Source: an archaeon (GTDB lineage: Archaea; Thermoproteota; Thermoprotei; Thermofilales; JAPDKD01). From it: a stretch of 41,284 nt of DNA. The notes beneath the pieces are model-generated. The model did no database searches. It saw only the letters and a list, made by a program, of their open reading frames with translations, and had not been told where the DNA came from. The stretch lies in contig JAPDKD010000103.1 of assembly GCA_029258735.1 (NCBI GenBank), positions 1 through 41,284 on the forward strand. Reading direction: 5' to 3'. Positions 1 to 718 of this stretch are shown piece by piece (position 1 is the first letter of the stretch; each line of letters opens with the position of its first letter). A program made the position numbers and the translations under genes.

Positions 1-129
1 TCCCTCGCTGTCGAATAGTCCCTGTAGGAATTCTATTGGGTATATGTGCGCTATTGTTTTCCATAGCCCGGTTATCCATAAAGTTACGCCAATAATTGCA
101 ATATTCGTTAATGTTGCTCTTTTCTATAA

Positions 130-494
130 CTTTAGGGGTGTTCTTCCCCCGCGCCCCGGGCCTCGCATCCGAAAAGCGCCCAGCATAGGGTTACGCCCCG
201 AGGCGGAGCCGCCCCAGAGAAAGGGGTGCCGAATACCGGCGAGCACGTTTCACCGAATCCCGCAATATCGCTAAGCCCGCCGCGCTCAACGGGAAAGCGG
301 ACAGGCCGAGCTAACGTCGCTTTCCCCTCCCCACCCGCTTGGCACGCCTAGCGTAGCCGAAAAAAGCGGGCAATCGCGCCAGCCAGGGCGCGCCTGGCGC
401 AGCCCGGCAGGGGCGCGACGTCTGAACGGCAGGGGCCTCCACCCCTCCCCTTCTACCGCCGCCCCAGGGACGGCTGGGCGGAACCCGCCCAAAG
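130..494 (-). ncRNA. GC-rich structured non-coding RNA candidate, family unassigned
   Basis: Abrupt GC-rich block in an AT-rich genome. Multiple perfect stems on the minus strand: terminal CUUUGGG/CCCUAAAG, GCGCCAG/CUGGCGC, CCCGCUU/AAGCGGG, GGGAAAGCG/CGCUUUCCC, GGCGGGC/GCUCGCC. G-U pairs in several helices would be A-C mismatches on the plus strand, which favours minus. A TATA-like ATTTTTATTA lies about 20-25 nt upstream. Confidence 0.6.
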
Positions 495-510
495 TTTTAT
501 TAAGCAAATC

Positions 511-520
511 TAATAAAAAT
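511..520 (-). promoter_or_regulatory. Putative TATA box for the GC-rich ncRNA
   Basis: Minus-strand ATTTTTATTA at roughly -17 to -30 from the inferred 5' end of the terminal helix. Confidence 0.35.
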
Positions 521-694
521 AGAGCCCATCAAAACAAAGTAATTTAAATAACTTTGGGGGTAAGTAAAAATTCATTAATGTTTCGAATAAGGACTAAACA
601 GCCCACTGATGAATTAATGTATTTTTCGTTATAGGGAATAGTTCTGAATACGCACATAGTTCAGCCCTTAAAACCATAAGCGAAAAGCTGTAAA

Positions 695-718
695 GTTCAA
701 ATCCCGGCGGGAGGACCA
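695..718 (+). pseudogene. tRNA 3'-end remnant (tRNA-Tyr-like acceptor/T-loop fragment)
   Basis: GTTCAAATCCCGGCGGGAGGACCA reads as G53 + T-loop TTCAAAT + CCCGG + CGGGAGG + A73 + CCA. The upstream TAAAG cannot pair as the T-stem 5' strand and no matching CCTCCCG 5' acceptor strand is present. G72/A73 is compatible with archaeal tRNA-Tyr (C1-G72). Confidence 0.5.

What the first reader, a model, noticed from the sequence alone, without database searches (positions are those of the whole stretch)
130..494. GC-rich, multi-helix RNA locus that does not match RNase P or SRP RNA motifs
Seen in sequence: about 365 nt of GC-rich DNA between AT-rich flanks, with a terminal helix (CUUUGGG/CCCUAAAG) closing at least five further helices, including GGGGCG/CGCCCC, GCGCCAG/CUGGCGC, CCCGCUU/AAGCGGG with an inner GGC-u-ACGC/GCGU-GCC hairpin, GGGAAAGCG/CGCUUUCCC, and GGCGGGC/GCUCGCC. 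G-U pairs in three helices pick the minus strand, and a TATA-like box sits at the right distance. Established knowledge: in AT-rich hyperthermophiles, GC islands usually mark structured RNAs. I looked for GAGGAAAGUCC (RNase P CR-I) and GGAAGG-AGCA (SRP helix 8) on both strands and found neither. It is either a very divergent housekeeping RNA or a new structured RNA.
Basis: partly seen in the sequence, partly recalled or inferred. Interest (0 to 1): 0.75.

Follow-up and report, generated by a model that had tools for sequence, protein, structure and literature searches.

The report
Structured RNA tied to homing endonuclease
The GC-rich patch is a decaying copy of a folded RNA that occurs three times in this hyperthermophilic archaeon's genome, each time directly in front of a gene for a DNA-cutting 'homing' enzyme whose relatives sit beside transfer-RNA genes, so it looks like the RNA part of a small selfish element that no RNA database yet lists.

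Summary
The GC island (window 134-492, minus strand) is a real structured RNA. It is not a housekeeping RNA: this genome's RNase P and SRP RNAs lie elsewhere, and no Rfam family matches. The genome holds two more copies (contigs C9 and C24) at 65-76% identity. The three share one fold: column-shuffle z -6.8, minus strand strongly preferred, 10 pairs changed on both sides against 4.1 in shuffles. Indels of 1, 2 and 4 nt exclude a conserved reading frame. Each copy lies directly upstream of a LAGLIDADG homing-endonuclease ORF: intact on C24, with two in-frame stops on C9, N-terminally truncated for the window copy, whose ORF continues on contig C17. That ORF ends beside a tRNA-Tyr, and a tRNA-Tyr-like 3' fragment lies at window 695-718. 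Relatives of the C24 enzyme in Thermococcus, Archaeoglobaceae and Thermoproteota mostly lie against tRNA 3' ends. Best reading: a tRNA-flank homing element carrying a promoter-RNA-nuclease cassette, with the RNA as the nuclease's structured 5' leader. The element assignment is well supported; the RNA's role is inferred. The RNA was found nowhere else searched.

The parts
134..492 (-). structured RNA, window copy (about 360 nt; somewhat decayed at its 3' end)
   Evidence: homologous to C9:1172-1550 and C24:9314-9577; CM R1 match 129-333, 192 bits
475..491 (-). 5' hairpin 1, UGGGCGGGUUCCGCCCA, pairs invariant in all three copies
   Evidence: helix 1
458..474 (-). 5' hairpin 2, GCCGU..GGCGGC, conserved in all three copies
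341..457 (-). internal module of about 117 nt with two bulged-U hairpins (386-405 and 341-358); absent from copy C24
   Evidence: 118-122 nt gap in C24; hairpin positions
440..451 (-). direct repeat (AGGGGAGGGGUG) at the start of the module, second copy near 320-334; C24 has only one, consistent with deletion between repeats
270..311 (-). helix 9, conserved in all three copies (88% of cells paired)
134..216 (-). long 3' stem (helices 11-13) tipped by a third bulged-U hairpin (167-191); in C9 and C24 it ends a few nt before the endonuclease Shine-Dalgarno sequence
493..538 (-). conserved A/T-rich promoter-like sequence upstream of the RNA; homology between copies ends about here
   Evidence: alignment A1, BLAST limits
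1..123 (-). LAGLIDADG ORF remnant (..LWITGLWKTIAHIYPIEFLQGLFDSEG..), no start codon, N-terminal half missing; continues on contig C17 to a tRNA-Tyr
   Evidence: 24-bp overlap of contig ends; 64% identical to C24 residues 196-223
695..718 (+). tRNA 3'-end fragment (positions 53-76), 20 of 24 identical to the tRNA-Tyr 3' end on C17
   Evidence: shuffled control maximum 16

Best explanation
The island is the RNA part of a small mobile element. From the outer end inward the element is: a promoter-like stretch, a 260-380-nt GC-rich structured RNA, a Shine-Dalgarno sequence, and a LAGLIDADG homing-endonuclease gene whose 3' end abuts the 3' end of a tRNA gene. SHOWN: three copies, conserved fold on the minus strand, fixed RNA-then-ORF order on the same strand, and tRNA adjacency for two copies. 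INFERRED: the nuclease cuts tRNA genes lacking the element and repair copies the cassette into the tRNA 3' flank. INFERRED: no T-run separates the RNA from the ORF, so the two are one transcript and the RNA works as the endonuclease's structured 5' leader, limiting or timing its translation, possibly by binding the nuclease or a host protein at its repeated bulged-U hairpins. The window copy is a decaying relic: its ORF lacks the N-terminal half and a start codon, and its 3' stem is damaged.
For: Copies in the same genome and ORFs right behind the RNA. Conserved minus-strand fold: z -6.78, 0/60 column shuffles; minus -105.9 vs plus -82.7 kcal/mol. 10 pairs with changes on both sides vs 4.1 shuffled and 0-4 slid. 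Non-triplet indels. C24 protein: LAGLIDADG_3, 1e-10; profile matches I-DmoI, 1.2e-8; AF2 model (pLDDT 75.9, helix-rich N-terminus plus LAGLIDADG core) matches I-DmoI and PI-SceI. tRNA at the ORF end: C24 tRNA-Phe, C17 tRNA-Tyr. In 14 of 25 GTDB relatives a convergent tRNA 3' end lies -37 to +103 nt from the ORF stop. tRNA 3' duplicates flank the window element (20/24) and L041 (26/32). Precedent: stand-alone phage homing endonucleases are held down by 5' RNA structures (PMC3014915).
Against: No transcript data. Only three sequences carry the covariation, and the structure was derived from them. The Shine-Dalgarno/AUG region is clearly sequestered only in C24 and mostly free in C9, which weakens simple ribosome-site masking. 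360 nt is long for a leader. The 25 GTDB relatives lack a detectable homologous RNA, so the RNA is not needed for the nuclease family as such. C9 shows only a possible tRNA 5' fragment, at the contig edge.
Confidence: 0.5

Rival explanations
1. The RNA is a separate functional partner of the endonuclease, a scaffold or guide-like RNA in the manner of HEARO/omega RNA with IscB, so the nuclease works as a ribonucleoprotein.
For: Same order as HEARO elements (structured RNA directly upstream of a nuclease ORF, own promoter-like sequence); the RNA stays while the nuclease differs (C9 and C24 proteins show no significant pairwise similarity); repeated bulged-U hairpins suggest protein binding.
Against: No segment matches the adjacent tRNA or flank beyond chance; no variable guide-like end; known LAGLIDADG enzymes bind DNA without RNA; relatives lack the RNA; no HEARO hit in Rfam scans.
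Confidence: 0.15
2. The RNA is a degenerate or novel self-splicing ribozyme (group I-like intron core) whose endonuclease ORF lies downstream.
For: Archaeal group I introns carry LAGLIDADG ORFs (PMC6125680); the nuclease differs between copies while the RNA is kept, as in introns.
Against: No group I or II Rfam match for any copy; copies are intergenic with no recognisable exons on the RNA strand; the RNA is antisense to the tRNA.
Confidence: 0.07
3. The RNA is a passenger non-coding RNA with its own host or element function (for example protein sponge or small regulatory RNA) that merely hitch-hikes with the endonuclease.
For: Not detected in the tested relatives of the element; module deleted in C24 without loss of the intact ORF.
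Against: Three of three copies are directly joined to an endonuclease ORF; no terminator-like T-run lies between RNA and ORF in C9 and C24.
Confidence: 0.18
4. The island is a DNA-level palindromic repeat with no RNA function.
For: GC-rich palindromes and direct repeats; no expression data.
Against: Strong strand asymmetry of the consensus fold and G-U retention; paired changes on both sides.
Confidence: 0.08

Closest known systems
HEARO / IscB omega RNA (HNH endonuclease-associated RNA and ORF)
   Same: structured RNA directly upstream of a nuclease ORF inside a small mobile element
   Different: nuclease is LAGLIDADG, not IscB; no guide found; no Rfam match; archaeal, at tRNA genes
RNA-regulated stand-alone homing endonucleases of T4-like phages (mobE, segB; also the I-TevI leader; PMC3014915)
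   Same: RNA structure in the 5' leader of a homing-endonuclease gene; segB also lies in a tRNA region
   Different: phage structures mask the ribosome site; here about 260-380 nt with many helices and weak predicted masking
Archaeal LAGLIDADG intron endonucleases (I-DmoI) and archaeal group I introns (PMC6125680)
   Same: nuclease family; archaeal hosts
   Different: no intron context, no group I core, ORF outside the RNA and convergent with a tRNA
tRNA-integrating archaeal elements (SSV-type attachment duplications)
   Same: tRNA 3'-end fragment on the distal side
   Different: no integrase seen in the element; duplicate found in only two cases and is imperfect

Membership tests
RNase P RNA (RF00373) | CM match at gathering score | tested here: not met
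   no hit in the window; the genome's own RNase P RNA is on C71
Archaeal SRP RNA (RF01857) | CM match at gathering score | tested here: not met
   no hit in the window; the genome's own SRP RNA is on C19
HEARO / IscB omega RNA | Rfam HEARO match and IscB (HNH/RuvC) ORF | tested here: not met
   no Rfam match; ORF is LAGLIDADG_3
HEARO / IscB omega RNA | guide sequence matching flank or target | tested here: not met
   longest shared words with the tRNA loci are not beyond the shuffled range for the matching pairs
Group I intron | P3-P7 catalytic core detectable by CM | tested here: not met
   no group I intron match in any copy
Group I intron | splicing from flanking exons | not testable with these tools
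   no exons recognised; needs in vitro assay
LAGLIDADG homing endonuclease (ORF) | LAGLIDADG motifs and fold | tested here: met
   PF14528 1e-10, I-DmoI profile 1.2e-8, fold matches
LAGLIDADG homing endonuclease (ORF) | site-specific cleavage of an element-free allele | not testable with these tools
   needs cleavage assay
5' leader of the endonuclease mRNA | co-transcription with the ORF | not testable with these tools
   no T-run between RNA and ORF in C9 and C24; no RNA-seq available
5' leader of the endonuclease mRNA | structure masks the ribosome site | tested here: inconclusive
   partly paired in C24, mostly free in C9

The most novel reading that the evidence does not exclude
A previously undescribed class of archaeal mobile element couples a large multi-domain RNA to a LAGLIDADG nuclease as an obligate ribonucleoprotein that targets tRNA genes: an RNA-dependent LAGLIDADG system, evolved independently of IscB/TnpB.
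Probability: 0.08. Interest if true: 0.92.

Novelty: new variant of a known kind. Interest (0 to 1): 0.6.

Why it matters
It gives a first example, to my knowledge, of a large covarying RNA fixed to LAGLIDADG homing-endonuclease genes. It also exposes a family of such nucleases parked at tRNA 3' ends across Thermococcus, Archaeoglobaceae and Thermoproteota. Such elements would be a direct source of selection on, and rearrangement of, archaeal tRNA genes. The two permuted tRNAs reported in Thermofilum pendens are iMet and Tyr (PMC3218864), and Met and Tyr tRNAs also recur as neighbours here; the link is speculative. Whether the RNA is only a leader or part of the nuclease is directly testable.

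Tried and rejected
Rfam scans of all three copies at permissive E-values gave only chance hits. DNA pattern scans of GTDB and IMG/VR, BLAST of phages and plasmids, BLAST of 398 phylum genomes (the one foreign hit, L025, lies inside a protein gene) and CM R1 over 398 genomes found no homolog outside this genome. The conserved upstream stretch of B12_G16 elements (L045/L051) looked like a second RNA but reads as a small ORF. Guide-like matches to tRNA: none beyond chance. The repeated bulged-U hairpin is only weakly significant as a sequence repeat (12-mer in C9, 5/200 shuffles; not significant in C3). A distal tRNA duplicate as a general feature of the family was rejected: found in only 2 of 18 cases, though several contigs were too short to show it.

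Full report
OBSERVATION. Window 134-492 is a GC island (about 0.70 GC) in DNA of roughly 0.44 GC. Its minus strand folds better than every dinucleotide shuffle (z -3.15, 0/100), the plus strand less so (z -1.42). No Rfam family reaches its cut-off there, and at permissive E-values only chance hits appear.

NOT HOUSEKEEPING. The genome (G000, 1.41 Mb, 139 contigs, 85% complete) has RNase P RNA on C71 and SRP RNA on C19, each above its family's cut-off.

THREE COPIES. BLAST and covariance-model searches of the own genome find two more copies, on contigs C9 and C24. Pairwise identity is 65-76%, with indels of 1, 2, 3 and 4 nt, so no reading frame is conserved. C24 lacks a 118-122-nt internal module. 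In the window copy the module is flanked by GGGGAGGGG direct repeats, of which C24 keeps one, so deletion between repeats is likely (inference).

CONSERVED FOLD. RNAalifold on the three copies gives 108 pairs at -105.9 kcal/mol on the minus strand against -82.7 on the plus strand. For the 3' domain no column-shuffled alignment of 60 folds as well (z -6.8). 92.7% of cells pair, and 10 pairs have both sides changed (shuffles 4.1; slid partners 0-4). A hairpin with a bulged U (GGC-U-ACGC-UAG-GCGU-GCC and variants) occurs three times in the long copies, but as a sequence repeat it is only weakly significant. Caveat: three sequences only, and the structure was derived from them.

THE PARTNER GENE. 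In every copy the RNA is followed on the same strand by a LAGLIDADG ORF. C24 has an intact 363-aa protein starting at GGGGTGAGAATATG right after the last RNA stem. It matches LAGLIDADG_3 and I-DmoI in the PDB by sequence profile, and its AF2 model matches I-DmoI and PI-SceI. C9 has one frame with two in-frame stops encoding a LAGLIDADG protein with no significant pairwise similarity to that of C24. The window copy has a remnant without start codon or N-terminal half, running off the contig. Contig C17 overlaps the window start by 24 bp and carries the rest of that ORF. This join is inferred from the overlap; no read data were seen.

tRNA CONTEXT. The C17 ORF stops about 13 nt from the 3' end of what reads as an intact, intron-containing tRNA-Tyr; ARAGORN did not call it in default mode, so this is my reading of the sequence. 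The C24 ORF stops a few nt from the 3' end of an intact tRNA-Phe. On the far side of the window element, at 695-718, lies a tRNA 3' fragment (positions 53-76) that matches the tRNA-Tyr 3' end at 20 of 24 bases, above shuffles. Relatives of the C24 protein in GTDB genomes show the pattern widely: in 14 of 25 loci a convergent tRNA 3' end lies within -37 to +103 nt of the ORF stop, mostly tRNA-Met in Thermococcus and Archaeoglobaceae, and Arg, Ser, Tyr and Gln in Guaymas archaea. Assuming about 46 tRNA genes per 1.8 Mb, chance adjacency would be well under 1% per locus (my estimate). One of these (L041) also has a distal tRNA-Arg 3' duplicate, 26/32. None of the 25 carries a detectable homolog of this RNA.

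MECHANISM. The supported anatomy is promoter-like stretch, RNA, Shine-Dalgarno, nuclease ORF, tRNA. I infer that the nuclease homes to tRNA 3' regions and that the RNA, lying between promoter and ORF with no T-run between, is its structured 5' leader. Phage stand-alone homing endonucleases are restrained by leader structures (PMC3014915). Masking of the ribosome site is predicted for C24 but not for C9, so the control, if any, is likely protein-mediated or at another step. A guide RNA function is not supported: no match to the adjacent tRNA loci beyond chance.

DISTRIBUTION AND NOVELTY. No homolog was found in 398 genomes of the phylum, GTDB, IMG/VR, phages or plasmids. The pattern scans are exact and narrow, and hydrothermal metagenomes could not be searched, so wider occurrence is open. 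Paper searches listed no description of a LAGLIDADG-linked structured RNA or of LAGLIDADG genes at archaeal tRNA 3' ends; the library is partial and most listed papers were not read. I class it as a new variant of a known kind: nuclease-linked structured RNA in a small selfish element.

ORGANISM. Placement is by the tool's kinship only. Several closed 1.6-1.8-Mb genomes in the same order suggest Thermofilales (inference). The closest named nuclease relatives are from Guaymas-labelled MAGs.

Noticed in passing
L028, L030, L032-L034, L036-L039, L041, L043, L045, L046, L051: A family of LAGLIDADG proteins with helix-turn-helix-like N-termini lies convergent with, and often almost touching, tRNA 3' ends across Thermococcus, Archaeoglobaceae and Thermoproteota; no description found in the held literature.
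   Followed up: partly
L041:2578-2609 (same element as L012 about 2426-2457): B12_G16 tRNA-Arg element has a distal tRNA 3' fragment with a different but self-consistent T-stem, suggesting the element brought its own tRNA 3' half.
   Followed up: partly
L045 about 370-610 and L051 about 2690-2915: A small, possibly winged-helix ORF sits directly upstream of the LAGLIDADG ORF in two elements of the same MAG.
   Followed up: no
L006:1-25: Contig C9 begins with a tRNA 5'-half-like sequence (GGTTGTAGCTCAGCGGAA) next to the decayed endonuclease ORF; no other copy in the genome.
   Followed up: partly
L018:1500-1783: A fourth LAGLIDADG C-terminal fragment abuts what reads as an intron-containing tRNA on contig C4, without the RNA.
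   Followed up: no
window 539-694: About 155 nt between the end of shared homology and the tRNA fragment is not shared with the other copies and is unexplained.
   Followed up: no
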